In this document: positions 46,294-50,806 of the stretch, piece by piece
How positions within the stretch are numbered: the first letter of the stretch is position 1
Layout: each line of letters opens with the position of its first letter
NCBI GenBank assembly: GCA_030747595.1
Contig: JASLKK010000003.1
Location: forward strand, 60,156 to 124,155
Length of the DNA stretch: 64,000 nucleotides
Direction: 5' to 3'
Source: Acidimicrobiales bacterium
GTDB taxonomy: Bacteria; Actinomycetota; Acidimicrobiia; Acidimicrobiales; MedAcidi-G1
Translations under genes and position numbers: made by a program
The notes under the pieces: model-generated
Told to the model about the DNA's origin: nothing
Database searches by the model: none
Seen by the model: only the letters and a program-made list of their open reading frames with translations

Positions 46294-46785
46294 TCAGCCG
46301 AGTGCGGCAGTGCCGGCGTAGGGAGCCGGATCGCCGAGGCTGGGGATCTCCGGACGGGACCAACTGGTCATGTCGGCCAGATCGGCCGCCGTCGCTCTCC
46401 ATGCTTCCGGATCCCAACCTTCGGCCACGCCGATCACCGATCCGTCCTGACGGATGGCCACGAACGCCGGAAGGCTGCTGAGGCCCATGGAACGTGCCAC
46501 GGACCGGTCGGGGTCAGCCAGGGTGAGGATCTCATCGACCAGAGGGCCGAGGAAGCTAGCGGCCCCGGCGGCATCAGCCCCGGCCACCACAAAGGCCACG
46601 CGGACATCCGCGCCGCGAAAGACGGTGAGCACGCGCCGGGCGGTGTCCAGCAGCCACGAACTCTCGTGGGTATAGGGGTCGACCACGACAGCAGCCATGG
46701 GAAAGGTGGTCAGCAACTGCGAGAGCAGGCGGGGGTCACCGCCAACGGGATGCAGTTCGATCGAGAGGTCGGGTGCGTTCGCCAC
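46294..46785 (-). CDS. Thioredoxin-fold protein without a CxxC motif
   Basis: 163 residues, no cysteines at all. The order beta-alpha-beta with 'MAAVVVDPYTHESSWLLDTA' near residue 30, 'ADVRVAFVVAGADAAGAASF' near 60, 'DPDRSVARSMGLSSLPAFVA' near 92 and 'IRQDGSVIGVAEGWDPEAW' near 112 matches thioredoxin-like topology with the cis-Pro in 'SSLPAF'. Missing CxxC means it is not a thiol oxidoreductase; perhaps a structural or binding member of a redox pathway. The start is 77 bases from the divergent mutY GTG. Confidence 0.65.
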   Translation of the reverse strand: MANAPDLSIELHPVGGDPRLLSQLLTTFPMAAVVVDPYTHESSWLLDTARRVLTVFRGADVRVAFVVAGADAAGAASFLGPLVDEILTLADPDRSVARSMGLSSLPAFVAIRQDGSVIGVAEGWDPEAWRATAADLADMTSWSRPEIPSLGDPAPYAGTAALG

Positions 46786-46862
46786 GGGCGCTGACGCTAG
46801 CGCGCCGCATTCGGATCTCAGGGCCCGGCCACTGTCTCCACCCCGGGACTACCGTCGGTTCG

Positions 46863-47780
46863 GTGGATGGCGCTGACCCCCTGCGATCGCTGTCGGCCGG
46901 CGAACAGGTTGCGCTGTCGTTACAGAGCCCTCCGGGGCTTCCCGTCGAGTTGCTGGCGTGGGGTCGCGAGCGCCTCCGCGACCTGCCGTGGAGGGCCGTT
47001 CGGGATCGCTGGTCGATCCTGGTGGCTGAGGTGATGCTCCAACAGACACAGGTCACGAGGGTGGTCGAGCGTTGGCCCCGGTTCCTCGGGCGGTATCCGA
47101 CGCCGACGGTATGTGCAAAGGCGTCGGTCGGCGAAGTGATCGCCGAGTGGTCGGGGCTGGGATACAACCGGCGGGCCGTGTACCTCCATCGGGCAGCTAC
47201 CGCGGTCGTCGACCGCCACGGGGGTCAGGTGCCCGGGAACCTGGCAGATCTGCTGGACCTACCCGGGATCGGGCCCTACACGGCGCGAGCGGTGCTGGCA
47301 TTTGCCGATGAGGCCGACGTGGGCATCGTTGACACCAACGTGGCCCGGGTGCTGGCTCGGTGGTCGGGTCGGGAACTCAGTCCTCGCGAGGTTCAGGAAC
47401 GGGCCGACGCGTCGGTCCCAGCTGGATCCGGTTGGGCCTGGAACCAGACCGTGCTGGATCTCGGTGCAACTGTCTGTCGGGCTCGAAACCCCACTTGTGA
47501 CGACTGTCCGCTCAGTGATGGCTGCGTCTGGAGGGGAGAGGGCATCGATCCCGCCATCGGGTCAGCAGGGGTCTCGGGGCGACAGGCGACCTTTGAAGGG
47601 TCTGATCGGGAGGGGCGTGGTCGGTTGGTGGCCGCATTGGCCGAGAACCCGGTAGACGACGACGGCCTGGCTACGGCAATGGGATGGCCCGACGATCCCC
47701 AGAGGGCTGAGCGGGTGGCAGCCCGGTTGGTGCTCGACGGCCTCGTCGTCACTGATGGTCGGTGTTGGCATCTGCCGTGA
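46863..47780 (+). CDS. mutY: A/G-specific adenine DNA glycosylase MutY
   Basis: 305 residues from GTG 46863. Helix-hairpin-helix 'LLDLPGIGPYTARAVLAFA' near residue 130 with the catalytic Asp in 'VGIVDTNVARVL' near 160, glycosylase motif 'AEVMLQQTQVTRV' near 58 and the [4Fe-4S] loop Cys-x6-Cys-x2-Cys-x5-Cys in 'CRARNPTCDDCPLSDGC' near 205. Removes adenine opposite 8-oxoguanine. The C-terminal NUDIX-like domain is reduced to about 80 residues with a winged-helix-like end. Its 3' end overlaps the convergent UGSC gene by 32 bp. Confidence 0.93.
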   Translation: MDGADPLRSLSAGEQVALSLQSPPGLPVELLAWGRERLRDLPWRAVRDRWSILVAEVMLQQTQVTRVVERWPRFLGRYPTPTVCAKASVGEVIAEWSGLGYNRRAVYLHRAATAVVDRHGGQVPGNLADLLDLPGIGPYTARAVLAFADEADVGIVDTNVARVLARWSGRELSPREVQERADASVPAGSGWAWNQTVLDLGATVCRARNPTCDDCPLSDGCVWRGEGIDPAIGSAGVSGRQATFEGSDREGRGRLVAALAENPVDDDGLATAMGWPDDPQRAERVAARLVLDGLVVTDGRCWHLP

Positions 47781-48345
47781 TGGCGTTCACCACGGTGCCG
47801 ACGAGCGCGTCAGCCATGGCGTGCATCTCCTCGTCGGTCCGATCCTGGATCGGATGGGGGGTGAACACGGTGGCCACCTCGAGCCCCAGTGCGCGGGACT
47901 GGGCCGCAGCGGCATCCCTGAACGGTTCCGAGGCAATCACTACCCCGGGAAGCCCTCGCCGTTCCAGATCGTCGATGTCGTGCACACTGCACGTCGTGCA
48001 GGAGCCTCAATCAGCGAGTGCTTCGATCACCGCGTCGCACTGAGTGGCGATCTCGTGGCGTAGGTCGGCGGGCGCTGGCTTGGTGAAGGTCGGCTTGGCG
48101 AAACGCAGCACGGTGGCCCCACGGCGCCCCAACTGCTGCTCGAGTCGATCGAGGAACACGTCGCCTCGTGGCTTGTTGATGTCCAGTAGACCAATGGTGA
48201 GGCCGTCTAGCGAGGGTTTCCGGGCGGTGAGGGTCCGATTGGTCGATTCGGCCTCGGAGGTCGGATCCAGGAGCATCACCGCCCCTGCGTGCTTCGCGAC
48301 ATCCGGATGGTGCCCGGTCGTCGGTGACGGGTCGGTGTCGCTCAC
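47749..48345 (-). CDS. UGSC-motif selenoprotein, in-frame TGA = Sec113
   Basis: 198 residues if the TGA at 48007-48009 is selenocysteine. GTG at 48345 overlaps the upstream stop (GTGA). Conserved blocks: 'VMLLDPTSEAES' (~24), 'LDGLTIGLLDINKPRGDVFL' (~51), 'FAKPTFTKPAPADL' (~85), 'CDAVIEALAD' leading into Sec-Gly-Ser-Cys, then 'TTCSVHDIDDLERRGLPGVV' and 'VFTPHPI'. This is the UGSC family known from marine metagenomes, also with Cys in place of Sec, of unknown but probably redox function. Standard calling ends at the TGA and leaves the last third as a separate 78-codon frame from a downstream start. A SECIS-like hairpin follows the TGA. Confidence 0.92.
47979..47993 (-). promoter_or_regulatory. 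SECIS-like hairpin of the UGSC gene
   Basis: Coding-strand stem CGUGC / GCACG (5 bp, 6 if A-U closes) around the loop AGUGU, covering nt 19-23 after the TGA with GU at 20-21. The geometry is the same as in the SelW gene. Confidence 0.72.
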
Positions 48346-49817
48346 GGTGTGATCTCCCTGCTGGTTGGTTCGCTTCCCATTGGGCCGTTCAACCAGCCTC
48401 CCACGATCGAGGAGAACAGGCCGGCCGGACCGCCGGCGTGGACGACAAGCAGCCCCCCGGGACGAAACTTTGGGAGGGTCAGGCCGGCCATGGCTTCGGG
48501 AAGGCCCTCCTCGATGCCGCCGGCGCCGATCACGATGGTGTCCGTGTCGACCATCAGGTGGGCGCCCAGTTCCTCCATGAACCGTGCCCGGTCCCAACCT
48601 GCATCACTGAATCGGGATAGGTGCTCGGGCGACACCACAAGCATGGCGTCCATGCCGGCCACCACTCTCGAAGACACTGCCGATCGCAGACCGTCGGCCA
48701 GTGAGCGAACCAGCGAATCGGCCGTCCGGCTGCGCTGGTCAACGACGATCCGGGGAGCTTCGCCACAGAAGGCGGTCACCACGTCGGTTGACCGGGCGAA
48801 GCCCCGTTCCTCGGCCAACGTGGTCCAGGGGCTGGTGGCCTCGTCCTCGGCGAAGCAGAAAGACAGCTTGGCCGGGCTCCCGTGGGTGGCCCGGTCGATC
48901 TCTCCGGGTCGACCGCCCCCCACGTTGCGTACAACCAGCTGGACGGCCCGTCCGATGGTCAGGTTGGCCCGGTTTCCATGGCCCAGGACGTTGATGCCGG
49001 CGTTCATGCCGATTCGTTGGGCAATGGGCCCGTTGACGACGAACACTGGTCCAACGCCCATCGTGGTGGCCAACACGCCGTGCATGTTGAACTCGTCAGT
49101 ACAGATGGCCTCCAGCGCTGCCAGCACCACCGGGAGGTACTCCGGACGGCAGCCGGCCATCACCGCATTCACGGCCACCTTCTCGACCGTGCACTCGACG
49201 AGTGCCGGGGGCATGAGCGCCACGATGTCGCCGGGCGAACGGGTCGTGCCGTCGAGCATCCGGGCTACCCGCGCCTCGGTCGGGGCGACGATGGGAAGGC
49301 CGTCGGTCCACCCCCGGTCGAACATGGCCTCCGCCTCATCCTCGAGGGAGCCCACCTCCACCCGACGCGACGCCAGGCCCCAACCGTCGTAGCGGGCCCG
49401 CAGTGCGTCGATCCGCCCGGGATCGACCGTCAATGACCCTCAACCGGGTTTGAAGGGCGGCAGGTCCGGGCCGAGGTTGCTCACGCCGGTGAACTCCTCC
49501 CACCGGTCGCGGTCCCAACCGGTGGTTCGCGCCGTCTCCACACCACCTTCAATTCTCAGGAGGGTGGGGACGGCGTCGAGGTCCAGGCCCCAGCTGATGG
49601 CCAGGTCGGTGTCGTCGACGACCCAGTCAGCCTCGGTGGGGAAGGTCGGGTCGTCCTGGGTGTAAACGGTCAGGTCGGCCCGTTCAGCGAGATCGACGAA
49701 CACCGGCCGGGCCAGTGCACAGGCCGGACAGCCGGCCTTAACGACGGCGATCAGCCCGTCTGGAAGCGACCCGGGATTTTGGACCTGTGACCCATTGGGA
49801 GAGGGTTCCATGGCCAT
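48342..49817 (-). CDS. Thioredoxin-fold domain joined through a TGA (possible Sec126) to a conserved ~360-residue domain
   Basis: Residues 1-125: thioredoxin-like domain with CPAC (Cys30, Cys33) in 'VVKAGCPACALARPVFVDL' and cis-Pro 'LDAVPTLLRIEGG'. It ends 'LPPFKPG' at a TGA (49440-49442). In the same frame after only Gly-Ser and a TTG codon runs a domain of ~360 residues with 'VEVGSLEDEAEAMFDRGWTD', 'GLPIVAPTEARV', 'VNAVMAGCRPEYLPV' and 'NRANLTIGRAVQLVVRNVGG', of unknown function. Read-through gives 491 residues with 'Sec-Gly-Ser', the same first three residues as UGSC. An 8-bp hairpin follows at SECIS distance. The alternative is two genes: 49440-49817 (125 aa) and 48342-49433 (363 aa, TTG start, no spaced ribosome site). 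The stop overlaps the UGSC start. Confidence 0.65.
49407..49427 (-). promoter_or_regulatory. SECIS-like hairpin at the thioredoxin / 360-aa junction
   Basis: Perfect 8-bp stem GTCGATCC / GGATCGAC around the 5-nt loop CGGGC, loop at nt 21-25 after the TGA, G in loop position 2. It also overlaps codons that look ordinary, so it needs comparison with homologues. Confidence 0.55.
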
Positions 49818-49918
49818 GGGCCGAGTTTCGCACCGTTTCCAATGTCACACCGAGCCGGCTGAGAGATGCGTCACATTTTCCCCGTCGAGCGGGGAGGCTT
49901 CCCTACCCTTGGTCACCG

Positions 49919-50806
49919 ATGGGGGAATCACTCGACGTCACGTTCTTCGGAGTCCGGGGTTCCACCCCGTGCCCGTGTGATGACAATCGGCGCTACGGGG
50001 GGAACACCTCGTGTGTGGTTCTCGACGTCCCCGGTGGCGAGCCGATCATCTTCGACCTGGGTACCGGCCTTCGGTTCTACGGCGTCGACGAGCGTTGCGG
50101 TTCAGGCCCCTTCCGGGCCACAGCGCTGGTAAGCCACCTCCACTGGGACCACGTCCAGGGACTTCCCTTCTTCGCTCCCTTGCACTGCCCGGATACCCGA
50201 CTCGACGTGTTCGGGCCGGGCGAGGAGGGAAGCACGCTCGAGCAGTCGTTCGACATGTTCATGACACCCCCATTCTTTCCGATCTGTTACCGGGAGTTGG
50301 TCGGGCGGATGTCGCTCAACGACACACCAGAGGGAGGCTTCGACGTCGGTTCGGCAAGGGTGACCGCCCGACCGGTGCCCCACGTCGGCCGAACGCTGGG
50401 CTATCGGGTCGACTGGAACGGGCTCAGCGTGGCCTACATAAGCGACCACCAGCAGCCCATCGACGATCCGACTCGTGTCGACCACCAGGTGCTGGCCCTG
50501 GCTGACGGCGTGGACCTGTTGATCCACGACGCCCAGTTCACCCCGGAGGAGTTCGCGGAACGCCCCCACTGGGGGCACTGCACCGTGGACTACGCCATCG
50601 AGGTAGCCCATCAGGCGGGGGTCGGCGAGTTGGTTCTCTTCCACCACGACCCGGCCCACGACGACGACCACATCGACCGTCTGCTGGCTGGGGCGCGTGA
50701 TCGTTCTGTCGGACTCGACGTAGACCATGTCTCTGCTGCTGTCGAGGGTCGCACGATCTCACTGGTGCCGTCCGACGACACGTTGGCAGCGGCGACTCCC
50801 CGCTAG
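49919..50806 (+). CDS. MBL fold metallohydrolase (PhnP/RNase Z-like group)
   Basis: 295 residues from ATG 49919. 'DVTFFGVRGSTPCPCDDNRR' start followed by 'YGGNTSCVVLD', metal-site HxHxDH in 'LVSHLHWDHVQGLPFF' near residue 75, His in 'ARPVPHVGRTLGYRVDW' near 160, Asp in 'SVAYISDHQQP' near 178 and the final His in 'LFHHDPAHDDDHID' near 240. The GVRGSTP start is typical of a cyclic-phosphodiesterase-like group of the superfamily. Divergent from the selenoprotein operon with about 100 bp between starts. Confidence 0.88.
   Translation: MGESLDVTFFGVRGSTPCPCDDNRRYGGNTSCVVLDVPGGEPIIFDLGTGLRFYGVDERCGSGPFRATALVSHLHWDHVQGLPFFAPLHCPDTRLDVFGPGEEGSTLEQSFDMFMTPPFFPICYRELVGRMSLNDTPEGGFDVGSARVTARPVPHVGRTLGYRVDWNGLSVAYISDHQQPIDDPTRVDHQVLALADGVDLLIHDAQFTPEEFAERPHWGHCTVDYAIEVAHQAGVGELVLFHHDPAHDDDHIDRLLAGARDRSVGLDVDHVSAAVEGRTISLVPSDDTLAAATPR

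What the first reader, a model, noticed from the sequence alone, without database searches (positions are those of the whole stretch)
47749..49817. A two-gene selenoprotein operon of unknown function
The fusion (or thioredoxin + 360-aa pair) and the UGSC gene overlap by GTGA and form one minus-strand unit, so a CPAC thioredoxin fold, a conserved 360-residue domain and a UGSC protein are probably made together. Two recoded TGAs in one operon would make expression strongly selenium-dependent. Co-occurrence suggests a thiol/selenol pathway, perhaps detoxification or reductive cleavage of a small molecule.
Basis: inference. Interest (0 to 1): 0.93.

Follow-up and report, generated by a model that had tools for sequence, protein, structure and literature searches.

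The report
Operon of two coupled selenium proteins
An actinobacterium carries a two-gene operon in which two in-frame UGA "stop" codons are very likely read as selenocysteine, giving a thioredoxin-fused protein and a UGSC selenoprotein whose genes sit side by side in several bacterial phyla and which are predicted to work together as one selenium-dependent reductase of a still unknown small molecule.

Summary
On the minus strand, a CPAC thioredoxin-like frame (49817-49443), a TGA (49442-49440) and a 360-aa stretch form one 491-residue frame; a UGSC gene with its own in-frame TGA (48009-48007) follows with a GTGA overlap. The first TGA is a Cys/Sec position: it aligns with a Cys invariant in 60 aligned fusions. 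Of 46 family genomes with a match, 41 keep one in-frame TGA, 4 have none, 1 lacks that part. An 8-bp SECIS-like hairpin (at least 7 pairs) follows in 29 of 29 distinct TGA rows, 7 of 73 Cys rows. The genome has selA, selB, selD and a UCA-anticodon tRNA-Sec. The 360-aa and UGSC families co-occur (16 genomes shared, of 17 and 17 among 246) and are fused in some. UGSC resembles the UxxCxxC domain of glycine reductase GrdB and is modelled as Rossmann-like, not thioredoxin-like. Most likely mechanism (inferred): thioredoxin-driven reductive cleavage of a small molecule by the UGSC selenol; substrate unknown. UGSC is a known family; its partner and the second Sec site were not found described in my searches.

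The parts
49443..49817 (-). Thioredoxin-like domain of the fusion (residues 1-125), CPAC at residues 30-33, VPT at 83-85
49440..49442 (-). In-frame TGA, predicted selenocysteine 126 (PGUGS); aligns with an invariant Cys
49407..49427 (-). SECIS-like hairpin: 8-bp stem, loop CGGGC, starting 12 bases after the TGA
   Evidence: at least 7 of 8 pairs in 29/29 distinct TGA rows, 7/73 Cys rows; pair 20-30 is C-G in 11 and T-A in 13 rows
48345..49439 (-). 360-aa domain of the fusion (residues 127-491), no Pfam or NCBIfam family found; stop TGA at 48344-48342
   Evidence: conserved D, G, P, N, R, E positions across distant relatives
47749..48345 (-). UGSC family selenoprotein gene, GTG start, 198 aa, GTGA overlap with the stop of the fusion
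   Evidence: PF24696 E 2.6e-44, 151.8 bits over cut-off 25; NF041046 154.1 bits over cut-off 125
48007..48009 (-). In-frame TGA, predicted selenocysteine 113 of the UGSCTTC (UxxCxxC) motif
   Evidence: TGA in 99 of 99 loci where the pattern found the motif next to a parsed fusion, of 108 parsed; TAG in one more, L124
47979..47993 (-). Candidate SECIS-like hairpin of the UGSC gene, loop GTG (an alternative stem with loop GAC overlaps it upstream)
   Evidence: loop GTG at this offset is the longest stem in 36 of 72 sequences; in the window itself the script preferred the alternative, so this is weaker evidence

Best explanation
The operon encodes a thioredoxin-360 fusion and a UGSC protein, each with an in-frame UGA that is very likely translated as selenocysteine, and the two proteins are predicted to form one reductase in which the UGSC selenol attacks a small molecule held with the help of the 360-aa domain and is then regenerated by the attached thioredoxin. 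Shown by sequence: one continuous reading frame in relatives, Cys/UGA alternation at one position, a hairpin that goes with the UGA, Sec machinery in the genome, and adjacency or fusion of the two families across phyla. Inferred from the resemblance of UGSC to the UxxCxxC domain of glycine reductase GrdB: Sec113 makes a covalent selenium adduct with the substrate or takes a leaving group from it, Cys116/Cys119 or the incoming PG[Sec]G selenol resolves it as a selenosulfide, and CPAC passes two electrons from the cell's thioredoxin reductase. Net reaction: two-electron reductive cleavage of a carbon-heteroatom or heteroatom-heteroatom bond in a small organic compound. The substrate is not known. 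My confidence by part: both UGAs recoded 0.95; one fused protein 0.94; the two proteins act together 0.93; GrdB-like reductive cleavage 0.45.
For: Recoding: invariant Cys in A3; one TGA in 41 of 46 family matches; hairpin 29/29 against 7/73; Sec label clustered on a tree of 107 rows, 2 changes against a shuffled mean of 20.2; inside one genus the TGA rows have the hairpin sequence and the Cys rows do not. Machinery: selB, selA beside it (by reading the frame), tRNA-Sec 66.9 bits with UCA anticodon, selD itself with one in-frame TGA. Coupling; selA- or selB-like genes neighbour some copies. GrdB link: 52 of 62 UGSC members hit TIGR01917 at E up to 1, best E 3.2e-6 (the window's own member 19.3 bits, cut-off 602.2); hhalign lines up the Sec motifs in register but with probability only 13%, E 0.0022; GrdB-type genes L180-L190 read UGTGTRC or UGTGTRS at the same place. 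Reductant: thioredoxin fold attached. [quoted passage not shown]
Against: No substrate, no activity, no expression data. The GrdB match is weak by every single test and covers only the Sec domain; the GrdB N-terminal domain has no match to the 360 domain. The core pair exists without thioredoxin, with Cys (L027) and once without any Cys or Sec at the site (L031: GDMGTSS), so redox chemistry is not required in every relative. Neighbours vary between lineages. One genome (G036) has a TGA-type UGSC but no selB over cut-off. In 6 of the 79 loci that reach past the fusion no UGSC lies next to it (L130, L131, L147, L148, L152, L158). The hairpin in the window alone is not rare: 980 of 20000 synonymous recodings reach the same stem length.
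Confidence: 0.5

Rival explanations
1. TGA 49442-49440 is an ordinary stop, and the thioredoxin (125 aa) and the 363-aa protein (TTG 49433) are two separate proteins coupled by a short gap.
For: Start-like TTG with GAGGG just before it in the window; database entries of close relatives are 327-363 aa long, as if cut here.
Against: Codon 4 is TTG in only 4 of 29 distinct TGA rows, and an ATG, GTG or TTG lies within codons 2-15 in 5 of 29; continuous Cys fusions elsewhere; hairpin; clustering on the tree.
Confidence: 0.04
2. The 360-UGSC core is not a redox enzyme: the Rossmann-like UGSC domain uses Sec or Cys as a nucleophile in a hydrolase or lyase of catabolic pathways, and the thioredoxin merely keeps the selenol reduced.
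For: Relatives with CGSC (L027) and one fused relative with no Cys or Sec at the site (L031/L234); core pairs sit near CoA-transferase III, acyl-CoA dehydrogenase, amidohydrolase, amidase, ThDP enzyme and transporter genes.
Against: The Sec codon is TGA in 99 of 99 Trx-linked loci where the pattern found the motif, and Cys116 and Cys119 are invariant in 62 aligned members, which a pure nucleophile would not need; a second Cys/Sec sits beside the thioredoxin.
Confidence: 0.25
3. The pair is a general antioxidant: a selenium-based peroxide, disulfide or sulfoxide reductase fed by its own thioredoxin.
For: Many thioredoxin-linked selenoproteins are of this kind (established knowledge, recalled); thioredoxin domain.
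Against: UGSC is not modelled as a thioredoxin-like fold and hits GrdB models rather than peroxidase families; the 360 domain has conserved polar positions expected of a substrate site.
Confidence: 0.18
4. The operon detoxifies an organometal or metalloid, like the SAO selenoprotein system.
For: SAO also couples several selenoproteins with a thioredoxin-like one (PMC13188914 passages).
Against: No Sao family hit at E up to 1 for the three operon frames or among 62 UGSC members.
Confidence: 0.05

Closest known systems
UGSC-containing selenoprotein family (Pfam PF24696, NCBIfam NF041046)
   Same: The second gene is a member: over both curated cut-offs, Sec codon in the UGSC motif. PMC2398784 (passages) lists 255 UGSC selenoproteins and a UGSC/Unknown_1 fusion in ocean samples.
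   Different: That paper guessed a thioredoxin-like fold; the model here is Rossmann-like. In the passages I read it mentions no thioredoxin-linked partner gene and no second Sec site. Whether Unknown_1 is the 360 domain I could not check (its supplement was not readable).
Glycine/betaine/sarcosine reductase selenoprotein B (GrdB, PF07355, TIGR01917) and the grdAB operon with two TGA codons
   Same: UxxCxxC motif, local sequence similarity at the Sec domain; a two-gene arrangement with two Sec codons (title of a reference in PMC13188914).
   Different: The GrdB N-terminal domain is absent, the 360 domain shows no relation to it by hhalign, and the partner is a thioredoxin fusion, not GrdA.
Thioredoxin family
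   Same: CPAC, VPT, fold; some Cys relatives are named 'thioredoxin family protein' in databases.
   Different: Carries an extra conserved Cys/Sec (PGUGS) after the fold and a 360-aa domain.
SAO (selenocysteine-assisted organometal) system
   Same: Several selenoproteins including a thioredoxin-like one in one operon.
   Different: No Sao family hit in the three operon frames.

Membership tests
UGSC family (PF24696 / NF041046) | Score over the curated cut-off | tested here: met
   151.8 bits against 25; 154.1 against 125
UGSC family (PF24696 / NF041046) | Sec or Cys in the xGSC motif | tested here: met
   In-frame TGA 48009-48007, UGSCTTC
Bacterial selenoprotein (the fusion) | TGA aligns with a conserved Cys in homologues, both flanks conserved | tested here: met
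   A1, 10 rows, and A3, 60 rows: column 126 invariant, with TGA read as Cys
Bacterial selenoprotein (the fusion) | SECIS-like hairpin just 3' of the TGA | tested here: met
   hairpin in the window 49427-49407. A single-sequence control is weaker: 980 of 20000 synonymous recodings reach the same stem length
Bacterial selenoprotein (the fusion) | Sec machinery in the genome | tested here: met
   selB, selA (by reading the frame beside selB), tRNA-Sec, selD
Bacterial selenoprotein (the fusion) | Selenium in the protein | not testable with these tools
   Needs mass spectrometry or 75Se
GrdB (PF07355 / TIGR01917) | Score over the family cut-off | tested here: not met
   19.3 bits against 602.2
GrdB (PF07355 / TIGR01917) | UxxCxxC Sec motif in register | tested here: met
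   (hhalign probability only 13%)
GrdB (PF07355 / TIGR01917) | GrdB N-terminal domain in the partner | tested here: not met
   hhalign of A3 with A4: probability 0.2%
GrdB (PF07355 / TIGR01917) | GrdA, GrdE and GrdC/D beside it | tested here: inconclusive
   None named among the 10 window frames scanned (each in one or both libraries); the rest of the genome was not searched for GrdA, GrdE, GrdC or GrdD
Thioredoxin | CxxC and thioredoxin fold | tested here: met
SAO system | Sao protein families | tested here: not met
   No Sao family at E up to 1 for the three operon frames
Class I fumarase (PF05681) | Profile similarity to the 360 domain | tested here: inconclusive
   Weak Foldseek rows, probability 0.23 and 0.30; hhalign probability 0.2%

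The most novel reading that the evidence does not exclude
A widespread, undescribed class of thioredoxin-driven reductase with two cooperating selenols on two polypeptides: a self-contained miniature of glycine reductase, built from a GrdB-type selenium domain, a new 360-aa substrate domain and a tethered thioredoxin, that reductively cleaves an abundant small organic molecule in several bacterial phyla.
Probability: 0.3. Interest if true: 0.86.

Novelty: new variant of a known kind. Interest (0 to 1): 0.64.

Why it matters
[quoted passage not shown] This locus supplies its partner, a plausible electron source, a second selenium site and a homology lead to glycine reductase, which together turn a hypothetical redox protein into a testable enzyme. 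The junction UGA also shows how annotation can hide selenoproteins: each half looks like a complete gene, and databases hold the 360 domain of close relatives as 327-363-aa proteins. Cys and Sec versions inside one genus, with the SECIS-like hairpin present or absent, are a natural experiment on what selenium buys.

Tried and rejected
Ordinary stop plus TTG restart: rejected. Relation of the 360 domain to class I fumarase, prompted by weak Foldseek rows: no profile similarity. Relation to the GrdB N-terminal domain: none seen. Thioredoxin-like fold for UGSC, proposed in PMC2398784: the model does not show it. Sequence search of the PDB for UGSC: no hit at E up to 1 with one sequence, one unconvincing row with the profile. 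Neighbour genes as a clue to the substrate: too varied to name one. Literature searches for a description of the Trx-360 protein or a second Sec site beside UGSC: (for SAO, for UAG), with passages of PMC2398784, PMC13188914, PMC9312934, PMC9402790, PMC7539508 and PMC5330540; nothing found, but subscription papers and supplements were not readable, and's 453 papers only 15 were listed.

Rows dropped before counts: 11 of 119 loci were not parsed, 1 (L160) was misread by the pattern (its frame reads RPGCAS), and 9 of the 108 parsed gave no UGSC motif (one of them, L166, has it with TGA; L124 has TAG). L100 and L101 repeat L078 and L076. Rows with N and duplicates were dropped (34 TGA rows became 29 distinct ones). 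In the selB comparison G196 (weak UGSC match below cut-off) and G183 (no UGSC) were left out: 12 of 13 TGA-type genomes and 0 of 3 without TGA have selB over cut-off. The co-occurrence test counts related genomes as independent. The tree does not tell one gain plus one reversion from two gains, because the fork at the base of the family is open.
Full report
What is there. On the minus strand of the window an ATG at 49817 opens a frame with a CPAC motif that meets TGA at 49442-49440 and runs on, in the same frame, to TGA 48344-48342. The UGSC gene starts at GTG 48345, overlaps that stop by GTGA, and carries one in-frame TGA at 48009-48007 inside UGSCTTC before its stop at 47751-47749. It belongs to Pfam PF24696 and NCBIfam NF041046, over both cut-offs. 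The thioredoxin part gave no convincing family hit alone, and the 363-aa part none at E up to 1.

The first TGA is very likely selenocysteine. (a) In nine order- or phylum-level relatives (L018-L026) the two parts are one uninterrupted frame with TGC or TGT exactly at that codon: PGCGS against PGUGS. (b) In the window's own family 46 of 48 genomes match the fusion; 41 have exactly one in-frame TGA, 4 have none and 1 is partial. Of these, the 30 that were fetched as loci (L070-L099) all read TGA at this place. (c) Over 60 aligned fusions from several phyla the Cys (TGA read as Cys) is invariant, like the two CxxC cysteines. (d) An 8-bp hairpin with loop CGGGC follows at a fixed distance: at least 7 of 8 pairs in 29 of 29 distinct TGA rows, 7 of 73 Cys rows; one pair is C-G in 11 and T-A in 13 rows. 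In the window alone the stem is less striking, since 980 of 20000 synonymous recodings equal it. (e) On a tree of 107 fusions (22 Sec, 85 Cys) the Sec label needs two changes, against a shuffled mean of 20.2, and starred branches force both. The Sec rows lie in one starred clade of 26 rows with 4 Cys rows inside it. One gain and one return to Cys, or two gains, fit equally because the fork at the base of that clade is open; the near-identical hairpin on both sides favours one gain. In that genus three of the four Cys members are printed (L235, L236, L238) and read TGT or TGC followed by VSPDRV without the hairpin sequence, while G258 and G259 of the same genus read TGA with it. (f) A restart codon is not kept: TTG in 4 of 29 rows.

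The genome can do it. selB is over its cut-off, selA lies beside it (read from the frame), a tRNA-Sec scores 66.9 bits against a gathering score of 47 and its anticodon loop reads CUUCAAA, that is anticodon UCA, and selD is over its cut-off and itself has one in-frame TGA.

The two genes belong together. The 363-aa family is in 17 of 246 phylum genomes, UGSC in 17 of the same 246, 16 shared; the exceptions are G183 (four matches to the 360 family without UGSC) and G196 (a weak UGSC match below cut-off). Gene by gene, 22 of 27 matches to the 360 family are neighbours of a UGSC match (read off). In G113 and G186 the selenium domain (UGSC, UDGC) and the 360 domain share one frame. Of the other 79, 73 have UGSC next to the fusion, in three of them cut short by the contig end, and 6 do not. 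In 28 of 67 loci with both genes parsed the start overlaps the stop by 4 bases. Where the pattern found the motif beside a parsed fusion, its codon was TGA in 99 of 99; L166 adds one more TGA, and L124, Candidatus Blastococcus massiliensis, has TAG, which agrees with the UAG-reading tRNA-Sec and UGSC selenoproteins reported for Geodermatophilaceae (PMC5330540, passage). Of genomes with a TGA-type UGSC 12 of 13 have selB over cut-off, of those without TGA 0 of 3. SelA-like and SelB-like genes neighbour several copies: two clusters of 8 loci each, named there by reading their sequences; 4 SelA and 3 SelB domain hits among 84 neighbour proteins scanned.

How it may work. 52 of 62 UGSC proteins hit the glycine reductase selenoprotein B model TIGR01917, best E 3.2e-6; the window's own hit is far under the cut-off (19.3 against 602.2 bits) and lies on the UxxCxxC domain. 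GrdB-type genes fetched from eleven genomes of the phylum read UGTGTRC, or UGTGTRS once, at the same position. hhalign puts the motifs in register with low probability (13%). I therefore infer, and do not show, that the UGSC selenol does GrdB-like chemistry on a small molecule held by the 360 domain, and that the tethered thioredoxin with its extra Cys/Sec supplies electrons. [quoted passage not shown]

Doubts. Core pairs without thioredoxin exist, some with Cys, one with neither Cys nor Sec at the site, and sit near catabolic genes of many kinds. A non-redox core is therefore a serious rival. No experiment bears on any of this.

Novelty. UGSC as a selenoprotein family, and one fusion of it, are in print (PMC2398784, passages). 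The thioredoxin-360 partner, its second Sec site and the GrdB resemblance were not found in the papers searched. I rate it a new variant of a known kind. That the host is an actinobacterium is inferred: two same-genus genomes (G278, G279) are the records titled Acidimicrobiaceae bacterium (L100, L101).

Noticed in passing
L035 / L046 / L227 (own genome G000, contig C14, 23465-24999): The window's genome has a second, thioredoxin-less pair: a 360-family gene (40% identity) followed by a UGSC gene with one in-frame TGA, beside SDR and amidohydrolase genes.
   Followed up: partly
L124, 9671-9673 (Candidatus Blastococcus massiliensis): The UGSC gene downstream of a Cys-type fusion has TAG in place of TGA at the Sec codon, in line with reported UAG-to-Sec recoding in Geodermatophilaceae.
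   Followed up: partly
L031 / L234 (G136 contig C25): A UGSC-like domain fused to the 360 domain has GDMGTSS where Sec or Cys stands elsewhere, so the domain exists without a selenol or thiol at the site; the gene sits near ABC transporter-like, aldehyde dehydrogenase-like and FAD oxidoreductase genes.
   Followed up: no
L180-L190: Eleven genomes of the window's phylum carry GrdB-type genes with an in-frame TGA reading UGTGTRC or UGTGTRS.
   Followed up: partly
G036 (L021, L045): This genome (94% complete) has a TGA-type UGSC gene but no selB over the curated cut-off: missing contig, or a pseudogene.
   Followed up: no
L120: A record titled Bifidobacterium breve carries the operon and groups in the tree with Acidimicrobiaceae and Ferrithrix-titled records; the title looks wrong.
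   Followed up: no
window 46773-47780 (+) and 49787-50806 (+): The operon lies tail to tail (32-base overlap) with a MutY-like HhH-GPD gene and head to head with a metallo-beta-lactamase-fold gene; such a gene and a flavin reductase recur upstream on the other strand in 16 and 19 of 80 loci (by reading the cluster sequences).
   Followed up: partly
L244 (G183 contig C272): Two frames on one contig each hold tandem copies of the 360 domain without UGSC, near an FAD monooxygenase-like and an aldolase-like gene (by reading).
   Followed up: no
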